From a virus: a stretch of 64,000 nt of DNA. Both the position numbers and the translations under genes were made by a program. Positions within the stretch are counted from its first letter, which is position 1, and each line of letters starts with the position of its first letter. Location: IMG/VR virus record IMGVR_UViG_3300019776_000919, positions 62,001-126,000 of that record, one strand, 5' to 3'. Of this stretch, positions 1 to 52,171 are shown piece after piece. The notes beneath the pieces were generated by a model that saw only the letters and a list, made by a program, of their open reading frames with translations, made no database searches and had not been told where the DNA came from.

Positions 1-2127
1 TCCGTTTCACCCCAAGAGATGCCAACATCGCCTTCACAACCAATGGGTAATTGGAGCCAAGGAAATGCTTTCATCGGGTATTCATCCATGGTCCGATAAG
101 TTAGGTTAATAACTTCTGCTGCTTTTTCTATGGGGCACTCAATTTCTATCGAATCGTAGCTTGATTCAAAAATATTTTCATATTTTTATGGACTATATCA
201 TAATGTGTTTAATACCCAAGTACCAAACACATTCCGTGCGCTCTAGAGGTTTTACCACCCGGTCAGGGCTCCATACCTTAGTCTCTGAACCTTCCACCTA
301 TTCCTAGGCGGCTTGGCTGCTGATTATCCAATCTTTCTCTTTTTCAAACTATCACGTTTACTATTACTAATTACGTTGTAGTAGAGAAAGCTCTCAGGGG
401 TTTCCAGCAATTCACACGGTTTTCAGTTATTCCTCACGAAATAACGCCGCCTACGTTAACGGTACATGTACAAATAGCACCGAAAGGTTTAACTACTCTA
501 TTTACTTCTGTAAAAGTAGCCAAGCCGATAGTACTAGTTGCGCTTTGAATGATTACGTTTTGACTGTTGCGCAAAGAACCGTTATAAGCGGCTGTAGGCT
601 TGAAGCAATTATAAGTCCCGAACTGACGCTTGCGTTGGCCAAGCGGAGTAATACTGAACTGATTGTATAGTGCAAATTTATGAGCTTTTTCAATGTATTC
701 CTTTACTTTAGGGAAAGTGTTAAAGTACATTGCAATGAGCGTTTCAGCTTCCGATTTTTCCAGGTTAAGCTGCATTGCAATGCCTGCGATTGAAGATCCG
801 TATAAGCAGATACTCTATATGTTTCCATATAGTCTAGACTATACCATCATCCTTTTATCTGTGAATCGATAAAGGATGCTCGCCGTGTTATGGATAAATC
901 CATCCTAGTATCATCTGTTCTAGATGACCTATGAGTCGTTGAACCATTTATAACCATCCCTGGTTATTCTGGCTGCTGATTGCCATACCTGATTTCAGGG
1001 TTAGGGTTCCAGCAATTGAGCGAGTTTGCATACTTATGTTACCACAAGTAGGTACCGTAATCAATACTAAAAGTCAAAGTCTTGCTCAGCTGGCGCAACT
1101 CTTTATATTCCCTATATTTAGGATGACTGCTGTCTGACAACACAGCAATAATCTCTTCATAAGGAATCTTTCTCATGGCACTTGCAGAGAATGAATGGAA
1201 GTCCAATCCCTCTGCAATAGCTTTCAGCATAGCTGGCTCTTTGGATATGTTTGCTAGAACCTTGACTTCAGCAGAGCTAAAGTCAAAGCTAATAAACACA
1301 TACCCCTCCCTTACAGTATAACAAGTTCTTACGTTGTATCCGTGCCTTGCTCTTGGGAGCTGGGTCAGGTTAGGATCTGAACCGGTTATACGGAATGAAG
1401 AGGTGCCAAATTGATTGTAACTGGGATGAATTCGTCCGTCTCTTTTTACCCAGTCTTTGACGTACGTTTTAATGAACGTATTATGAACCGAGGAAATATC
1501 ACGGCGAACAGCCATATCAGCTAGGAACTGAAGCTTTTCATCTTTAGTTACGTATTTACCACCTAAAGGATCTAATCCTGCAAGAGTCAATAAGGCAACT
1601 CCATCAGTAGCAGGTTCACCACCTTTCGTAGTAAACGGTACTTCAAACCCTAGTTCTTCATACAAAAAGCTAGCTACTGCAGGGCCAGAATTTAAATCAA
1701 TTTTCTTCCCAATTTGAGAGAATATCTTATCTTCTAATTGAGCTATTTGCTCAACCATCTTTCTATCAAGGAATTGATTGCGGGGGATGGAATAACCCAT
1801 ACCTGCAATTTCCAAGTCGATAAGAAATTCATGAGCTGGTATTTCTAATTCCAAAAAGCTTTGAATTATAGGCGGAGCTTTCGAGTCCACTCTATTGCCC
1901 CGATCATCAAAATCGATAATCGGAGTTTCCATTACTAAATCTGGAAAAGTCTTGGCTAAAAGTTCAGACGTAGCAATGCAATCTATGCCTGCATAAGTAT
2001 AGAGTTTTTCTTCATCGAAATCTTCATACGTAAGTTTTTCTGAGGCGCTTACTTCTGATTTCTCTTTAGACTCGCTGTTTTCAGAATCGTCAAATAGTTC
2101 GTCAATCCAAATCAGTTGTGAACTCAT
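1..2127 (-). CDS. DNA polymerase I-type polymerase subunit, three exons, 3' end outside window
   Basis: Family A DNA polymerase, the phage replicase catalytic part. Exon 1 (2127 to about 1056) opens at an ATG overlapping the upstream stop (ATGA). It begins with an exonuclease motif III (Y45 xxx D49), then carries polymerase motif A (SFDFSSAEVK) and the start of motif B (RQLSKTLTFSIDYG). Exon 2 (about 800 to 459) resumes with SSIAGIAMQLN, which aligns at exactly the E. coli spacing after YG, and ends at FGAICTCTV. Exon 3 (159 to 1 and beyond) gives YDSIEIEC, so motif C reads VYDS instead of the usual VHDE. The two gaps hold group I intron cores. Without splicing, in-frame stops truncate the protein within motif B. 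Exonuclease motifs I and II lie in a separate gene at 2671-3963. Confidence 0.88.
160..458 (-). ncRNA. Group I intron 2 in the polymerase gene (299 nt, no ORF)
   Basis: On the minus strand the segment contains the ordered group I core elements: P-like GAATTGCTGGAAACCC, Q-like AATCAGCAGCCAAGC, R-like GTTCAGAGACTAA and S-like GATATAGTCC. The P7 pairing GACTA/TAGTC is present. The best junction leaves a U at the end of the 5' exon and a G as last intron base, and restores ACC GTC TAC GAT (TVYD). It lies inside polymerase motif C. No endonuclease frame is present. Confidence 0.88.
798..1055 (-). ncRNA. Group I intron 1 in the polymerase gene (about 257 nt, no ORF)
   Basis: Minus-strand core elements in order: CAATTGCTGGAACCC, CAATCAGCAGCCAG, GTTCAACGACTCA and GGTATAGTCTAG. 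Both boundaries carry ACGG (1055-1058 and 798-801), so the exact junction is ambiguous by four bases. Any of these cuts restores the O-helix reading DYGSSIAGIAMQLN. The insertion is inside motif B. Confidence 0.84.
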
Positions 2128-8428: not shown

Positions 8429-9460
8429 TTATTTCCCTACTGCTATTTTTATCCATTTTTTAGTACTTAACTCTAATGGTTTAAATTCACCAGATTTACA
8501 TCCAATGTTGTCATATTCACACCATTTGCAATAAGGACCTCTAACATGCTTGAAATAACCCATTTCTTTTAGAAGATCTATTGCACCTTCCAGGCTCATT
8601 TCTAAGCCATTCTTAAGGTTATTTTCAATATCATCCGGATCAGAAAAATCAAGCATCTTAACTTCACCCTCCCCGATAAAATGCACGCCCGTCTGAGCAC
8701 CTTTTACTTTAGAGATAGAGAAGTGAAATAGGATCTTATACCAGTCTAATTGTTCTTTATAAACCTTAGGACTTCCTTGCCCGCCGCCAGTTTTATGATC
8801 CAGGATAACAATATCCATGCACTCTAGTAGTAAGACTAGGTCAATTACGCCTCGAACCCATACGTTCTTGCCAAAAAAATCAGCGGGTTTGAAATCTCTA
8901 GTGATACCCATTCGAAGTTCCGTAAACACCTTTTTAATAGGAGTACGTAACTTAAAGTTATCTATTCGATCCTTGAATTTATTTATGTTGAAACTTAGAA
9001 TAGTAACTCGTTCCTCCCAAACTTCAGGGGTCAACAGTTTTTTATCTAAGTAATCTTTCTTTACTTTAGCGAAAGACTTTTCAACATCTTCACCTAGTAA
9101 TACGTTCTCTAGGATTTCGTGCGCAGCTTTACCCACGTTGGCTGAAATAGGATCTGACTGTAGAAGTAAATTTTCTGGCAGTTTGAACTTAAGAATGTAC
9201 TTCAAATAGAATTGAAAAGGACATTTCTTTAGAGATTTATACTTTGAGTATGACCAGGGGCCCAATGACAAAATATCTAAAGGAACGTGTTTTAATTCTC
9301 GATCTAACTTTTCTATCTCAGTTAGAAATACGTTCTTAGGCTCGGCTAGTTCAGCAGGAACGGGGTTAGGAAGATCTTTCTCAGTTTCAGCTACTTCATT
9401 TTCCCAAGGAGGAGTAGATGCTACTTCCGATTTTTTAGTTTTAGTTTTTTCTTTTTTCAT
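8429..9460 (-). CDS. RecB/Cas4-like PD-(D/E)XK nuclease with C-terminal Cys cluster
   Basis: 343 aa. Visible family features: SYSKYKSLKKCPFQFYLKYI, AHEILE, GVIDLVLL (metal-binding D), ILDHKTG (catalytic D and K), and a C-terminal Cys set (CKWCEYDNIGC plus the upstream CPF cysteine) like the Fe-S site of Cas4/AddB-type nucleases. The N-terminal 60 residues are a charged, proline-rich tail. It probably processes DNA ends during recombination or replication. Its start overlaps the upstream gene's stop (TAATG). Confidence 0.84.
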   Translation of the reverse strand: MKKEKTKTKKSEVASTPPWENEVAETEKDLPNPVPAELAEPKNVFLTEIEKLDRELKHVPLDILSLGPWSYSKYKSLKKCPFQFYLKYILKFKLPENLLLQSDPISANVGKAAHEILENVLLGEDVEKSFAKVKKDYLDKKLLTPEVWEERVTILSFNINKFKDRIDNFKLRTPIKKVFTELRMGITRDFKPADFFGKNVWVRGVIDLVLLLECMDIVILDHKTGGGQGSPKVYKEQLDWYKILFHFSISKVKGAQTGVHFIGEGEVKMLDFSDPDDIENNLKNGLEMSLEGAIDLLKEMGYFKHVRGPYCKWCEYDNIGCKSGEFKPLELSTKKWIKIAVGK

Positions 9461-10122: not shown

Positions 10123-10980
10123 TTACAGGCTGTAATTTTTAGCTAGGTTGCTGACTTCAGAAGCTTTAACTTCGTCTACTACAACATTGCTTTCTAAAGC
10201 CGGGGTATCACTCTCAGTTGAATTGTTTGACAGGGCCAAACGATCCCGACGCTCAGTAGCATTCTTGTAGAAAATCTCAATAGTCTTCTTGCGATCTTCT
10301 GAGACTGCGCTAAACAGTTCCTTGAGGAATGGGAGAAGTTCTGCAGGGGTTTTGCGATCCTTTTCATCCAGAACTTGGACTTTGAAATTCTCAACATTCT
10401 TAGCCGTCGAACTAGTTGCGCTTGTCAACCCATAGATTCTCTGATAGGGCAGGACCCCAGCCCGTTTCATCAAACCTTCCAACTCATTACCAATCTTGAA
10501 ATTAGATTTCGAGAATTGGATCAAGAAGATAGATTTCAGATCGCTGGAGATAGCCAAGACAGACTTACTCTTGCCGCAGTCACTTCCAACGCCTTCAACC
10601 CATTTTGCATGTTCACAAGAGTAACATTCACGACCGATTTGACCCATCTTAGCGTCAGGGCTCCAGCACAGCATCTTGTTGTTGGTTTGGTCCGGGTCCC
10701 AGTATTGACGAGTATCCCAAATGCGGATAGGGATGAACTTCAGAGGCTGTTCAAGTTTAGTTTCACCAAGAACGAAATCACCGATAGAAGTCCCCTTAGG
10801 GAGAGAAGTTCTATCCGTGGTTCCTTGAACCAGACGCAGGAAACCGGGCTTCCATTGAGTAGGAGTATCGCCAATGCCTTCAATCGGTGTACCCATTTCT
10901 TCGATAAGTTTCAAGGCATTTTCTTTAATACCTTCGGGGAGGGCTTCGGCTGCAGAGGTCAGAGTTTCAAGATTATTCAT
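10123..10980 (-). CDS. Possible single-stranded DNA-binding or replication protein with zinc-like Cys cluster
   Basis: 285 aa. The core (about residues 60-190) is beta-rich and contains a CYSCEHAKWVEGVGSDC cluster that could hold a metal. The C-terminal third is charged and ends in an acidic, serine-rich tail, as many SSBs do. Position beside nuclease and primase genes fits an SSB, but no diagnostic motif confirms it. Confidence 0.5.
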   Translation of the reverse strand: MNNLETLTSAAEALPEGIKENALKLIEEMGTPIEGIGDTPTQWKPGFLRLVQGTTDRTSLPKGTSIGDFVLGETKLEQPLKFIPIRIWDTRQYWDPDQTNNKMLCWSPDAKMGQIGRECYSCEHAKWVEGVGSDCGKSKSVLAISSDLKSIFLIQFSKSNFKIGNELEGLMKRAGVLPYQRIYGLTSATSSTAKNVENFKVQVLDEKDRKTPAELLPFLKELFSAVSEDRKKTIEIFYKNATERRDRLALSNNSTESDTPALESNVVVDEVKASEVSNLAKNYSL

Positions 10981-39027: not shown

Positions 39028-39128
39028 TGGAGGAGAGACTGGGATTCGAACCCAGGTTTCAATGCCAATTCCTACCTTCGGTTGCTCCCGTGTAGTCCTT
39101 GCGTCCTAAGCCTCTAGACGATCTCTCT
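39028..39128 (-). tRNA. tRNA-like RNA A: Glu-type body with 32-nt anticodon loop
   Basis: Acceptor (A)GAGAGA/TCTCTC(C), with an A1-C72 mismatch. D arm GTCTAGAGGCTTAGGAC as in tRNA-Glu, T arm CTGGG-TTCGAAT-CCCAG, variable loop AAAC, and encoded CCA are all present. The anticodon stem CAAGG/CATTG (one mismatch) closes a 32-nt loop instead of 7. The loop contains its own hairpin CTAC-A-CGG...CCG-AAG-GTAG, so no anticodon can be assigned. Too short for a group I intron. Confidence 0.6.
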
Positions 39129-39136
39129 TTTTAAAA

Positions 39137-39250
39137 CCTCGTCAAGGTGGAATCAAACCACCATTATGGAGTTGGCATTGCCGTTACGAACAATCGTCGT
39201 GTTTGGCACGTCCTAGTGCTCCATTGTAATGCCATTATACTATCGACGAG
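39137..39250 (-). tRNA. tRNA-like RNA B: Gly-type body with 47-nt anticodon loop
   Basis: Perfect acceptor CTCGTCG/TGACGAG, Gly-like D arm (AGTATAATGGCATTACA), T arm GTGG-TTTGATT-CCAC, and discriminator G with no encoded CCA. Anticodon stem ATGGAG/CTCCAT is perfect, but it closes 47 nt with three small hairpins in a row: CGTG/CACG, ACGA/TCGT and GGC/GCC. No 7-base loop or anticodon can be defined. Confidence 0.6.
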
Positions 39251-39276
39251 TAACATCCGGTCAGCTACTCCGGAGG

Positions 39277-39366
39277 TTGAAATAGTTAGAAGCTTATTCC
39301 ACGAGCCGTTTATGGTCACGGTGCAAGAATGAACTTCGCTCTGAATACAGCTTCTAACTATTTCAA
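39277..39366. ncRNA. Candidate structured RNA closed by an 18-bp perfect stem
   Basis: TTGAAATAGTTAGAAGCT/AGCTTCTAACTATTTCAA. After one bulged base it continues as TATTC/GAATA, giving a 23-pair rod, with GAGC/GCTC and CCGT/ACGG pairs inside. Immediately follows tRNA-like B. Confidence 0.5.
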
Positions 39367-39369
39367 TTG

Positions 39370-40170
39370 GCAAAGCTCACATACCGTTACCAACAAAGTA
39401 GAACCAAAGGTCCGTGTCATGGTTTTTGCAAATGTCTGCGTGGAGCATGGCCCAGTCCAAGTTCAGACGTGATTGTGGTGATGCGTAGACGTTCAAAAGG
39501 GAAAGCATGTGAACTCCTAACTGTATGAAAGACAAGTCAAGCAATACCTTATCCAAGTGGCCTTATTGAGACTTTTCCAGTAAGAGGGACTCTCCTGGTA
39601 CGGTAGTCAAAAGGGGACTCAAACAAGTGCCGAAGGATTTACCCTGGGAGCCAAAATCACTTTCTTCACTCAAGTTTACCGCGAATAGACTTGATCTATT
39701 AGAACAAAGACTTGTCTTTAATACAGTCAAGGTGGATTGGAAATTACGCAAAAGGTGGTGAACCTCAGTCATCAATTTATAGTTGCGACCTATTGTTGCG
39801 TCTGGGATTAATAACCCGCTGTGTTTCGTGGCCACAAAGAGCACAGTTGAGAGTTACATGATCAGGTTCAGCCAACATTGAATTCTTCAGGTTCACCACC
39901 TTTTGCGCAAATTTAAGGTGCCCCTCCTTTGAGGCACGGTACTCTTACAAAGCAAGGCTCCTTGCGAACAAGGATCTTGGGAGGGGCATCTGAACTAGAA
40001 GGAAACTCCTAGTTCAGAACTTCGGTTCAGGCTGCGAGAGCCTGGACATAGCTGCTGTCATTGGCAGTTACTTGTTTACCTACATGTTTAACGAGCATAC
40101 AGGCTGGCTCGTGTTGTAGTCTAAGATACTAATCTGTCAATCGAATGCCTAGTCACCCCCATTGAACAGC
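39370..40170. ncRNA. Candidate large non-coding RNA within the tRNA array (about 0.8 kb)
   Basis: The longest gene-free stretch in the island. It has a 19-bp stem at 39747-39765/39889-39907, TGCCCCTCC/GGAGGGGCA (39919/39980), TGAACTAG/CTAGTTCA (39991/40009), a GAAC-TTCG-GTTC tetraloop hairpin (40018-40029), CAGGCT/AGCCTG and ACGAGC/GCTCGT. Size, density of stems and position among phage tRNAs recall GOLLD/ROOL-type RNAs, but identity is not shown. Confidence 0.5.
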
Positions 40171-40174
40171 TTAA

Positions 40175-40313
40175 TGGTGGAGGTGCCCGGAATCGAACCG
40201 GGGTCTTGCCAGTTGTTCTCTCTTTCTTTCAGATGAGCGAACTCATCACACAACAATTCTTTTAAAGGTCCAACTTCTACCTTTTTACTACTACATAACC
40301 GCAGGTGATACCT
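40175..40313 (-). tRNA. tRNA-like RNA C: T arm and acceptor with expanded body
   Basis: The 3' part is canonical: CCCGG-TTCGATT-CCGGG, CACCTCC, A, encoded CCA. The best 5' partner is GAGGGTG (one A-C mismatch and one G-U). Instead of normal arms there are AGGT/ACCT, AAAGGT/ACCTTT and a GTTGT/ACAAC stem enclosing a GATGAG-TTCG-CTCATC hairpin. The 3' end resembles tmRNA, but the segment is far too short and no tag frame is seen. Confidence 0.45.
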
Positions 40314-49251: not shown

Positions 49252-49572
49252 TTACCAACCAGCGGGCAATGGGTAACCCGCTTTTTTTGCTGCGTTGCGG
49301 GCCTTTTGAAGAGCCGCATCTTTCAAGGGGGAACCTTGAGGATAGTTGCGAGTCATCATCAACTCCCAAATCGCCGTCATCAGTTCGTCAGAAGCAGAGA
49401 ACAGCTTGGCAGTTGCGTGCAACTGGTCAAGGTTTTCAAACACTCGGCTGGGAGTTTCCACCTTGCACTTGAACTTGGGGCAGGGGCGGTCAAAACCGTC
49501 CTTACCCATTGCGTAAACAGTGACCCCAGAAACCTCGAAAGGTTCCTGAACATGTTTCTTTTTAAGATTCAT
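49252..49572 (-). CDS. Hypothetical protein, GC-rich
   Basis: 106 aa. N-terminal strand pattern (EPFEVSGVTVYAMGKDGFDR), C-terminal helices with KAGYPLPAGW. Not recognised. Confidence 0.6.
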   Translation of the reverse strand: MNLKKKHVQEPFEVSGVTVYAMGKDGFDRPCPKFKCKVETPSRVFENLDQLHATAKLFSASDELMTAIWELMMTRNYPQGSPLKDAALQKARNAAKKAGYPLPAGW

Positions 49573-49594
49573 GAGTAGACTTCCGGGTTAAGGA

Positions 49595-49894
49595 TTAGGG
49601 CTTACTGTAAGTGTCGTGTTGCAAACCCTTGTATGCGCCGATGGCCATGATGCAGCCAGCGATGACTGCAAAGCCTGCAGTCACGTAGCTTTGTATCTCT
49701 GCAGCACGTTCACGTTTGCGGGTCTGATCCATCAAGGTCAGGGTGCGGTCAAAGATGAGGTCTTCACCTTTTTCAGGAACGGAGAGGTCAATCTCCAAGA
49801 GACCAGCTTTGATGTTGACGCGCTCACGCCGTACGGGTGCTCGGCGGTCAGGTTGAACTTGACCACTGGCATCAGTGAAAGTCTTGGGTTTCAT
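49595..49894 (-). CDS. Small membrane-anchored protein
   Basis: 99 aa from MKPKTF, which has GTGAGGAAAG upstream. Acidic/basic soluble part, then one C-terminal transmembrane helix (SYVTAGFAVIAGCIMAIGAY). GC-rich. Confidence 0.6.
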   Translation of the reverse strand: MKPKTFTDASGQVQPDRRAPVRRERVNIKAGLLEIDLSVPEKGEDLIFDRTLTLMDQTRKRERAAEIQSYVTAGFAVIAGCIMAIGAYKGLQHDTYSKP

Positions 49895-49956
49895 GTCTTT
49901 CCTCACGTTGTATGTTACGGGAGAAGGGGGTTTCGCAAAAGGAATCATGAATCACC

Positions 49957-49994
49957 TTAAAAAAAACCTGAGCAACCGGGTAGGCGCTCAGGTT
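49957..49994 (-). terminator. Rho-independent terminator
   Basis: AACCTGAGC/GCTCAGGTT hairpin then T8 on the minus strand, after the 109-aa gene. Confidence 0.85.
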
Positions 49995-50012
49995 CTTTCA
50001 GGCCGGGGAGGT

Positions 50013-50342
50013 TCAGGCGGTCAGCGGGTCACCGGCGACTTCAGCAGCCGCTTGGTTCATGGCTTCGGTCAGCTTGCGCTGGCCAACCTTGTTGCCCGCG
50101 TAGTAACCCAGCCCGCCAGCAATGGCAGCAATGCCGACGCCCGTGGCTGCGGCAAAGTAGCCCTTCTGCCACCAGCGCTTTTCAAGGGAGGCGGCCGGGA
50201 CCACGCTCTGATGGCCTTGGCTGTCCACCATCAGGATCTCGCCGGGGCCGGGCAGGCTGGCGGTGTTGGCACGGGTCTCGTTGGCCTCAGCGGTGTTGGT
50301 GGTGGCTTCGGCGTTGGCGGTGTTGGCGTTCTTGTTCGACAT
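50013..50342 (-). CDS. Small membrane protein with Asn/Ala/Thr-rich start
   Basis: 109 aa. Residues 1-28 are low complexity (NANTANAEATTNTAEAN). One membrane helix (GYFAAATGVGIAAIAGGLGYYAG). The next gene upstream has the same layout and near-identical start, so they are paralogues. GC-rich. Confidence 0.6.
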   Translation of the reverse strand: MSNKNANTANAEATTNTAEANETRANTASLPGPGEILMVDSQGHQSVVPAASLEKRWWQKGYFAAATGVGIAAIAGGLGYYAGNKVGQRKLTEAMNQAAAEVAGDPLTA

Positions 50343-50416
50343 GAGATTTCTCCTAGAAGAGGTTGGGGTTGGCCCGAGTTACGGGCCGAGGTGCTGGATG
50401 GGTTGAAAAGCCTGGA

Positions 50417-50680
50417 TTACAGGCTGGCGGCGTTGTTGTTGACCGTGTCCTGGCCGAGGTAGTCTTGGCCGAAAGCCTTGTGGGCCGCAGCACGACCGGC
50501 AGCGGCACCGAAACATGCCAAGAACACAATGCCGACATAGCCGAGTGCGGCCATGGCAAAGACCTTGGTGGCGCTGGGCTCCTTGGCGCCTTCCTGCTTG
50601 ATGAAGATGATGCGTTCGGTGCGGGTGTTGCCAACGTCAGTTTCGTTGTTGGCAGTGTTGGTGTTGGTTTCGTTCGACAT
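50417..50680 (-). CDS. Small membrane protein, paralogue of the neighbour
   Basis: 87 aa. Low-complexity N-terminus (MSNETNTNTANNETDVGN), then a membrane helix (VFAMAALGYVGIVFLACFGA). Good GAGAACCTC before the ATG. Promoter at 50740. Confidence 0.6.
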   Translation of the reverse strand: MSNETNTNTANNETDVGNTRTERIIFIKQEGAKEPSATKVFAMAALGYVGIVFLACFGAAAGRAAAHKAFGQDYLGQDTVNNNAASL

Positions 50681-50739
50681 GAGGTTCTCCGAGAAGTGGT
50701 GGGTTTGTTGCGAGGAAAGCTATTTTTCTCCGCACTATA

Positions 50740-50748
50740 CTTATACCA
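50740..50748 (-). promoter_or_regulatory. Full-type phage promoter
   Basis: ATTACAAGATGGTATAAGTATAG, upstream of the 87-aa gene. Confidence 0.72.
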
Positions 50749-50809
50749 TCTTGTAATTTGAATATTGAAAAATTTGAGCTGTTTTTACATAAAAAGATCG
50801 AAAAAAGAC

Positions 50810-50844
50810 TGAAAATAACTAAAAATACCCGTTTTACGAGTATT
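50810..50844 (-). terminator. Terminator after the 159-aa gene
   Basis: AATAC(T)CG/CG(G)GTATT hairpin followed by TTTAGTTATTTT on the minus strand. Confidence 0.7.
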
Positions 50845-50861
50845 TAGGACCGTTGAACGGG

Positions 50862-51341
50862 TTAGTTCAACAGTTTTTGTTCTTGCGGCTCATCTTCGCT
50901 AGCGAGGGCTATACCCACGATAGTTGAGAAGAGTAACAAGGTTGCCATCCCGATGGTAGGTAGGATGCCATCCAAAAAGCTAGATGATTGCTTTTCGGTT
51001 TTTTCAGGAGTACCGATAAGAACAAACTTATCAGCTAACAATTCCTTGCGGCTGAAAGAAAGCACGGGTGCGGAAGAAGATTTCAGCAAGGATTGAAACC
51101 GTTCTTCAGAATCGTACTTTCGATCAGAGATACCGATCTGCACGGGACAGTCGTTATCAGTGACGTGGATGTTGCGGGTATTGTCCGGATTAACCGAAGC
51201 AATTACTGCTGCCAAATCATGAGTAAAGATACTCGCAGACTTGGTGTCAGGGAATCGAACAATCAGATCCCCTGTTTGCGTGTCATCAGGGACAATAAAT
51301 ACTATCCCCATGTCTATGTCATCAGAAAACTCCTCTTTCAT
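50862..51341 (-). CDS. Tail-anchored membrane protein
   Basis: 159 aa. Soluble beta-rich domain of about 115 residues and a C-terminal membrane helix (ILPTIGMATLLLFSTIVGIAL), ending EDEPQEQKLLN. Last minus-strand gene before the palindromic divergence region. Promoter at 51387. Confidence 0.6.
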   Translation of the reverse strand: MKEEFSDDIDMGIVFIVPDDTQTGDLIVRFPDTKSASIFTHDLAAVIASVNPDNTRNIHVTDNDCPVQIGISDRKYDSEERFQSLLKSSSAPVLSFSRKELLADKFVLIGTPEKTEKQSSSFLDGILPTIGMATLLLFSTIVGIALASEDEPQEQKLLN

Positions 51342-51386
51342 AGTACCCCTTGCTAAGAATGAAACGTACGATCTCCCTACTTAGTT

Positions 51387-51395
51387 CTTATACCA
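51387..51395 (-). promoter_or_regulatory. Recurrent promoter motif (TGGTATAAG)
   Basis: AAAGTGGTATAAGAACTAAGTAGG before the tail-anchored gene, directed away from the palindrome. Confidence 0.7.
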
Positions 51396-51594
51396 CTTTC
51401 CGTATCGAAAATTGGAATATCGATTTAAACGACTTTAAAGCGATTTTTTTAACGTAAGGTAGGCATGGGTATAGGGTTGCTATTGAAAATTCAACCAAGG
51501 GTCGATTAAGGGCCCTGCTGAAGGTTTCTAGGATAAATTCCTATGTGAGTTATTTCAGATCGAATTAAAGCGAGGTTCCAATCGTTGAAAAAGG

Positions 51595-52171
51595 TCAAAA
51601 GCCAGTTTTTTTCTAGGCTGTTGTAATTTGTCCGGAATTTGTGGCAGAAATTGTTCCAGTAAAATCAGGGAAGAGCCACTTTTTATTTTTTCATTTTTCA
51701 AAAAGTGGCTTCAGGAGTTCCAGTCTTTATTGGTAAAATAGGGTCAAAAGCCAGTTTTCCACTTTTTTTGGAAAAAATATACATACTCTATGAGAGAGAA
51801 AAAAATTTCTGGAAAAATGGAATTCAATATTGTAATATTAAAGTGCCAGTAAAACATACACTTATATATATATATATATATTACTTCTCCTGAGATCTAT
51901 ATTATATATATATATAAGGGACATATTTGTGGCTTTAATGTGTTGATATTTTTTTCCAGAAATTTTCTCTCACACAGAGTATGTATATTTTTTCCAAAAA
52001 AAAGTGGAAAACTGGCTTTTGACCCTCTTTCCCCTGTGGATACTAGAACTCTTGAAGCCACTTTTTGAAAAAACGAAAAATAAAAACTGGCTCTTCCCTG
52101 ATTTTACTGGGACAATTTCTGCCAAAATTTTCGGACAAAACTGGCAAGCAAAAATAAAAACTGGCTTTTGA
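51595..52171. repeat. 577-bp imperfect palindrome at the divergence of minus and plus genes
   Basis: Left arm 51595-51880 and right arm 51886-52171 are inverted copies with a TA-repeat centre. Matching blocks include TCAAAAGCCAGTTTT at the outer ends, CCAGTAAAATCAGGGAAGAG, GTCAAAAGCCAGTTTTCCAC and GGAAAAAATATACATACTCT. GTCAAAAGCCAGTTTT occurs twice as a direct repeat in each arm. Each arm has its own small hairpin (51675-51709; 52057-52091). No gene is seen in 51342-52301. Candidate replication origin, packaging or regulatory site. Confidence 0.85.

What the first reader, a model, noticed from the sequence alone, without database searches (positions are those of the whole stretch)
39137..39250. 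tRNA-like B: perfect acceptor and anticodon stems around three tandem hairpins
Seven of seven acceptor pairs, six of six anticodon-stem pairs (ATGGAG/CTCCAT) and a good T arm argue for selection, not decay. The 47-nt loop consists of CGTG/CACG, ACGA/TCGT and GGC/GCC hairpins. No CCA is encoded, unlike the ordinary tRNAs here.
Basis: seen in the sequence. Interest (0 to 1): 0.75.

Follow-up and report, generated by a model that had tools for sequence, protein, structure and literature searches.

The report
Phage tRNA gene with interrupted loop
A large bacterial virus carries a transfer-RNA gene whose anticodon loop is interrupted by a 40-base insert; this copy has no known relatives, but following it up exposed a widespread and apparently undescribed family of small structured inserts in phage tRNA genes, some of them filed as 'pseudo-tRNAs'.

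Summary
The structure is real and not chance: minus strand 39250-39137, a cloverleaf with an 8-bp acceptor stem, 6-bp anticodon stem, 5-bp T stem and a 47-nt anticodon loop. It is best read as a tRNA gene interrupted by 40 nt: removing them between positions 32 and 33 leaves a canonical loop C-U-GCC-A-A (anticodon GCC). The three mini-hairpins are possible but not favoured over another loop fold (-15.1 against -15.5 kcal/mol). No homologue was found, so covariation cannot be tested and selection is unproven. Glycine identity bases, C56 and CCA are missing.

The follow-up is stronger than the finding. KVP40-, Aeromonas- and Rak2-like phages and metagenomic phages carry tRNAs with roughly 35-55-nt inserts in the anticodon arm, sharing a covarying hairpin (7/7 pairs with compensatory changes, 37 sequences) followed by an invariant C-N-G-C-A. 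KVP40's 'tRNA-Pseudo-3/4/5' are members; I found no published description. Tested by covariance model, B is NOT a member. A relative of the window phage has a tRNA-Asn with a ~32-nt loop insert.

The window phage encodes a Pnkp kinase-phosphatase-ligase that could reseal a cut tRNA. Rivals: processing element beside a large structured RNA, or a decaying tRNA.

The parts
39137..39250 (-). tRNA-like B, whole gene (interrupted tRNA, anticodon GCC if the insert is removed)
   Evidence: ARAGORN intron mode; fold; descriptor
39243..39250 (-). acceptor stem 5' strand CTCGTCGA, 8 bp
39138..39145 (-). acceptor stem 3' strand TTGACGAG, followed by G and no CCA
39226..39240 (-). D arm GTATAATGGCATTAC
39219..39224 (-). 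anticodon stem 5' strand ATGGAG
39178..39217 (-). 40-nt insert between tRNA positions 32 and 33
   Evidence: alternative boundary one base earlier
39198..39210 (-). possible mini-hairpin CGTG/CACG
   Evidence: present in sequence; not preferred by folding
39186..39197 (-). possible mini-hairpin ACGA/TCGT
   Evidence: present; in both folds compared
39174..39182 (-). possible mini-hairpin GGC/GCC, pairing insert with the anticodon
   Evidence: present in sequence; not in the lowest-energy fold
39174..39176 (-). anticodon GCC of the restored loop CTGCCAA
39166..39171 (-). anticodon stem 3' strand CTCCAT
39146..39162 (-). T arm GGTGG-TTTGATT-CCACC
39031..39128 (-). tRNA-like A, second tRNA with a swollen anticodon arm, encodes TCCA
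   Evidence: RF00005 34.5 bits; no canonical restored arm
39168..39180 (-). CAATGCCAACTCC in B, complementary 12/13 to A
   Evidence: (I9)
39060..39072 (-). GGAATTGGCATTG in A, complementary 12/13 to B
   Evidence: (I9)

Best explanation
B is a phage tRNA gene, anticodon GCC, interrupted by a 40-nt intron-like insert in the anticodon loop between positions 32 and 33. Proposed working: the B-A-Asn-Gly array is transcribed as a precursor, and RNase P and tRNase Z trim B through its intact acceptor and T arms. The insert is cut out at the loop by an activity not yet identified (endonuclease or ribozyme). The phage's own Pnkp (kinase, phosphatase, ligase) heals and seals the ends, and the host adds CCA. 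Shown: the anatomy, the non-chance cloverleaf, the canonical loop on removal, the Pnkp gene, and comparable interrupted tRNAs in other phages, one of them a relative. Inferred: transcription, cutting, sealing and use in translation.
For: Cloverleaf not reached in 40 shuffles of the window. Removing 40 nt gives TGGAG-CTGCCAA-CTCCA, a perfect 5-bp stem with U33 and A37; shuffled arms do so in 1.1%. ARAGORN reads the joined form as an ordinary tRNA-Gly. A relative by polymerase (G018) has a tRNA-Asn with CCA, RF00005 55 bits and a loop insert of about 32 nt. Covarying anticodon-arm inserts occur in tRNAs of many other phages. The phage encodes an 868-aa Pnkp with kinase, phosphatase and PNKP_ligase domains; Pnkp-type enzymes seal tRNAs cut in the anticodon loop (PMC3400036).
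Against: No homologue, so no covariation or conservation. RF00005 does not match B. U56, discriminator G and lack of G1:C72, C2:G71 and U73 argue against charging with glycine by a bacterial GlyRS (established identity rules, not tested). No CCA although all ten ordinary tRNAs in the window have it. No cutting enzyme identified; no archaeal-type endonuclease. G018 has no PNKP_ligase hit, so Pnkp is not strictly tied to such tRNAs.
Confidence: 0.4

Rival explanations
1. B is a decaying tRNA relic: a former tRNA that took up an insert in a gene-poor region and no longer decodes; the stems persist because decay is recent.
For: No homologue; no RF00005 match; missing CCA, C56 and glycine identity bases; neighbour A is also swollen, has an A1.C72 mismatch, and no canonical arm can be restored from it.
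Against: 8/8 acceptor, 6/6 anticodon and 5/5 T pairs are intact, unlikely for a drifting relic; the loop is canonical on removal of the insert.
Confidence: 0.3
2. B is a tRNA-like processing element, not a decoding tRNA: its acceptor and T arms recruit RNase P and tRNase Z, so that cleavage at B's 5' end makes the 3' end of the large structured RNA just upstream (39930-39260), as mascRNA does for MALAT1. The anticodon arm is then free to vary.
For: B starts 10 nt after a 671-nt stretch folding at z -6.8. The best-kept parts of B are the acceptor and T arms, which are what RNase P needs (established knowledge). The missing decoding features fit.
Against: It does not explain the perfect 6-bp anticodon stem or the canonical restored loop; the structured RNA has no known function or relatives.
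Confidence: 0.18
3. B acts unspliced together with A: their swollen anticodon arms pair with each other, or serve as a decoy for an anticodon nuclease.
For: 12/13 complementarity between B's loop and 3' stem and A's insert, reached by 4 of 4000 shuffles, other tRNA pairs at most 11. The joint fold of B and A uses this helix.
Against: One pair of genes, no homologue, post hoc search. The joint fold is only about 3 kcal/mol better than two separate cloverleaves. No nuclease tested.
Confidence: 0.12

Closest known systems
Covarying anticodon-arm inserts of KVP40-, Aeromonas- and Rak2-like phage tRNAs (defined here as model R1; annotated tRNA-Pseudo or tRNA-OTHER in KVP40, CBB, Kaldavass)
   Same: Phage tRNA interrupted in the anticodon arm by some tens of bases; hairpin followed by a C-N-G-C-A string; canonical arm restored in many members.
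   Different: B lacks the U-GNNA-A hairpin and the 3' tail; the model gives no match.
'Enigmatic' tRNA introns of Lak megaphages (Devoto et al. 2019, PMC6784885)
   Same: Small non-group-I inserts in phage tRNA genes, mechanism unknown.
   Different: Different sequences; R1 does not match Lak-A1 either; two Lak-A1 long tRNAs read here share no obvious core with B.
Group I introns in bacterial tRNA anticodon loops
   Same: Insert in the anticodon loop; two group I introns occur elsewhere in the window.
   Different: 40 nt is far too short for the group I core; no RF00028 match at B.
Archaeal/eukaryal protein-spliced (BHB) tRNA introns
   Same: Short insert in the anticodon loop; insert GGC can pair with the anticodon GCC.
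   Different: Position 32/33, not 37/38; no splicing endonuclease family PF01974 in the phage.
mascRNA-type tRNA-like processing elements
   Same: Intact acceptor/T arms next to a large structured RNA.
   Different: Function of the upstream RNA unknown; B keeps a full anticodon stem.

Membership tests
R1 phage tRNA insert family (defined here) | Covariance-model match | tested here: not met
   Held-out members 33.6-59.4 bits; nothing at B, best local score 4 bits elsewhere in the stretch; none in the whole phage record
R1 phage tRNA insert family (defined here) | Hairpin with UGNNAA-type loop before the core | tested here: not met
   B hairpin is ACGA-UUGU-UCGU
R1 phage tRNA insert family (defined here) | Invariant C-N-G-C-A after the hairpin | tested here: met
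   B has CGGCA two bases after its hairpin, but so short a string is weak evidence
R1 phage tRNA insert family (defined here) | Insert in the anticodon arm of a tRNA | tested here: met
Ordinary tRNA | Match to RF00005 | tested here: not met
   No match at E<10 for the unspliced gene; the joined form is read as tRNA-Gly by ARAGORN
Bacterial tRNA-Gly | U73, G1:C72, C2:G71 identity bases | tested here: not met
   B has G after an 8-bp acceptor starting CUCG (sequence); the window's tRNA-Gly(TCC) has U73
Group I intron | RF00028 core | tested here: not met
   Hits only at 169-467 and 815-1073; none at B
Archaeal/eukaryal BHB tRNA intron | Splicing endonuclease PF01974 in the genome | tested here: not met
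   (the record may be incomplete, and a host enzyme is not excluded)
Archaeal/eukaryal BHB tRNA intron | Canonical position 37/38 | tested here: not met
   Insert at 32/33
Spliced phage tRNA (any mechanism) | Joined exons seen in RNA | not testable with these tools
   needs RNA from infected cells

The most novel reading that the evidence does not exclude
Large phages use at least two unrelated kinds of tiny tRNA introns, one with a conserved covarying core and one (B-like, 40 nt in the loop) without it. They splice them with their own RNA-repair enzymes (Rnl1/kinase or Pnkp), an intron and splicing pathway outside group I, group II and BHB splicing.
Probability: 0.25. Interest if true: 0.9.

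Novelty: new variant of a known kind. Interest (0 to 1): 0.6.

Why it matters
Small non-group-I introns in phage tRNAs are almost unreported (the one description found is of Lak phages, mechanism unknown). The search started from B uncovered a family with strong covariation in cultivable phages (KVP40, nt-1, Aeh1, GAP32, CBB), where splicing can be tested directly. If spliced, phage RNA repair enzymes would have a second job beyond repairing anticodon-nuclease damage, and 'pseudo-tRNAs' in phage annotations would be functional genes.

Tried and rejected
Exact and gapped DNA patterns for B in viral contigs gave nothing or two chance hits that look protein-coding. BLAST of B, and of B with the insert removed, gave no match. 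BLAST of A gave only weak partial matches under ordinary-looking tRNAs. Membership of B in the R1 family was hoped for because of the shared ACGGCA after a hairpin, and was rejected by the model. Bacterial genome scan for the R1 core: three chance hits, none a tRNA. Group I and BHB readings rejected. RtcB: absent from the window phage, present in Arash. Restoring a canonical arm in A failed. ARAGORN intron mode also joins neighbouring tRNAs into false 'introns'; these were ignored. G021 (L150:3660) gave a candidate with no valid restored arm and was set aside.

Full report
Setting. The window is positions 62001-126000 of a 169.7-kb IMG/VR phage record. Its RNA polymerase beta and helicase are related to those of Salmonella phage Arash and Vibrio phages D69/D148/D181. 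The finding lies in a gene-poor stretch on the minus strand. The order on that strand is permuted tmRNA (40267-39936), a structured stretch, B, tRNA-like A, tRNA-Asn, tRNA-Gly.

Observation. B folds as a cloverleaf with an 8-bp acceptor, 3-bp D stem, 6-bp anticodon stem and 5-bp T stem. A descriptor using acceptor, D and T arms found no equally good hit in 40 dinucleotide shuffles of the window. The loop is 47 nt. The three proposed mini-hairpins (-15.1 kcal/mol) and another fold (-15.5) are equivalent. The Rfam tRNA model does not match B.

Anatomy. ARAGORN in intron mode calls B tRNA-Gly(GCC) with a 40-nt insert between C32 and U33. Removing it gives TGGAG-CTGCCAA-CTCCA. Only 1.1% of shuffled arms allow any such solution. 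Features that speak against decoding: U56, discriminator G, no CCA (all ten ordinary tRNAs in the window have CCA), and missing glycine identity bases (established rules, read from the sequence).

Homologues of B. None was found in annotated phages, in 26 IMG/VR records related by the polymerase gene, or with the patterns tried in viral contigs. The metagenome collection could not be scanned. Covariation in B is therefore untestable here.

A family found on the way. A gapped tRNA pattern hit Cronobacter phage GAP32, whose tRNA-Glu carries an insert of about 42 nt that recurs in Rak2-like phages. The Vibrio phage D479 match led to several long tRNAs, and a core pattern led to KVP40 and phiAS5. 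Retrieval of relatives and a viral scan gave dozens of members. In 37 aligned arms the insert has a hairpin in which 7 of 7 pairs show compensatory changes, a covariation score of 0.590 against 0.158 in shuffles and at most 0.132 when slid, and an invariant C-N-G-C-A. In many members removal of the insert restores a 5-bp stem and 7-nt loop, often with the insert between positions 28 and 29; for a good part my strict search (T33, purine 37) found no solution, so exact boundaries are not settled. KVP40's annotated tRNA-Pseudo-3, -4 and -5 are members. Papers on KVP40-like phages list some such tRNAs as pseudo-forms (PMC3468402; PMC5107563). No bacterial genome hit was a tRNA. Rfam reports only tRNA families in these loci.

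Is B a member? No. A model of the family scores held-out members at 33.6-59.4 bits and gives nothing at B, nor anywhere in the window phage, Arash, D69 or Lak-A1. B resembles the family in being an interrupted phage tRNA and in one short string, not in the defining hairpin. A phage with a related polymerase (G018, 61% identity) has an interrupted tRNA-Asn of its own kind, with CCA and 55 bits to RF00005.

Enzymes. The window phage encodes an 868-aa protein with kinase, metallophosphatase and PNKP_ligase domains, outside the window at record position 49484-52087. KVP40, D479, GAP32 and phiAS5 encode RNA ligase 1 and a kinase of the AAA_33 family. D69 has both without a detected interrupted tRNA, and G018 has no PNKP_ligase hit, so this is circumstantial. 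T4 Pnkp and Rnl1 are known to repair tRNA cut in the anticodon loop (PMC3400036). No archaeal-type splicing endonuclease was found.

Alternatives. B could be a processing signal for the 671-nt structured RNA just upstream, since acceptor and T arm are what RNase P needs. It could be a relic, which its missing identity bases and the imperfect neighbour A favour. Or it could act unspliced: B and A share a 12/13 complementarity reached by 4 of 4000 shuffles, but one case with no homologue proves little.

Verdict. The 'three hairpins under selection' reading is not established. B is most simply an interrupted tRNA gene of uncertain function. The lasting result is the covarying insert family in cultivable phages. 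The prior art found is the enigmatic introns of Lak phages (PMC6784885), which the model does not match (one genome, Lak-A1, tested). The interest score covers both: B alone would deserve about 0.35.

Noticed in passing
39260-39930 (minus strand): A ~670-nt stretch between tmRNA and B folds at -212 kcal/mol, z -6.8 against 20 shuffles, with three long near-perfect helices and no Rfam match: candidate large structured RNA.
   Followed up: partly
39936-40267 (minus strand): Phage-encoded permuted (two-piece) tmRNA, tag ANDSSYVQALAA.
   Followed up: no
39060-39072 and 39168-39180: A's insert is complementary (12/13) to B's anticodon loop and 3' stem; 4 of 4000 shuffles reach this.
   Followed up: partly
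L033:8687-8799, 8810-8933, 10484-10599 (KVP40); L021:5845-7277 (D479); L016:9930-10042 (GAP32): Covarying insert family in phage tRNAs, annotated as tRNA-Pseudo or tRNA-OTHER in some records.
   Followed up: yes
L145:1140-1247 (minus): tRNA-Asn with CCA and a ~32-nt loop insert in a polymerase relative of the window phage.
   Followed up: partly
L103:9484-12087 (minus), record position 49484-52087: 868-aa Pnkp with kinase, phosphatase and ligase domains in the window's phage; Arash has RtcB instead.
   Followed up: yes
169-467 and 815-1073 (minus strand): Two group I introns, 78.5 bits each.
   Followed up: no
L026:1912-2028 (minus); also L037:4016-4131, L038:4016-4132: Aeromonas phages carry a tRNA-like stretch in which a second T-arm-like hairpin precedes the last one.
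   Followed up: no
L033:12376-12459 (KVP40): KVP40 'tRNA-Pseudo-2' matches the tRNA-Sec family just over its cut-off (49.2 bits).
   Followed up: no
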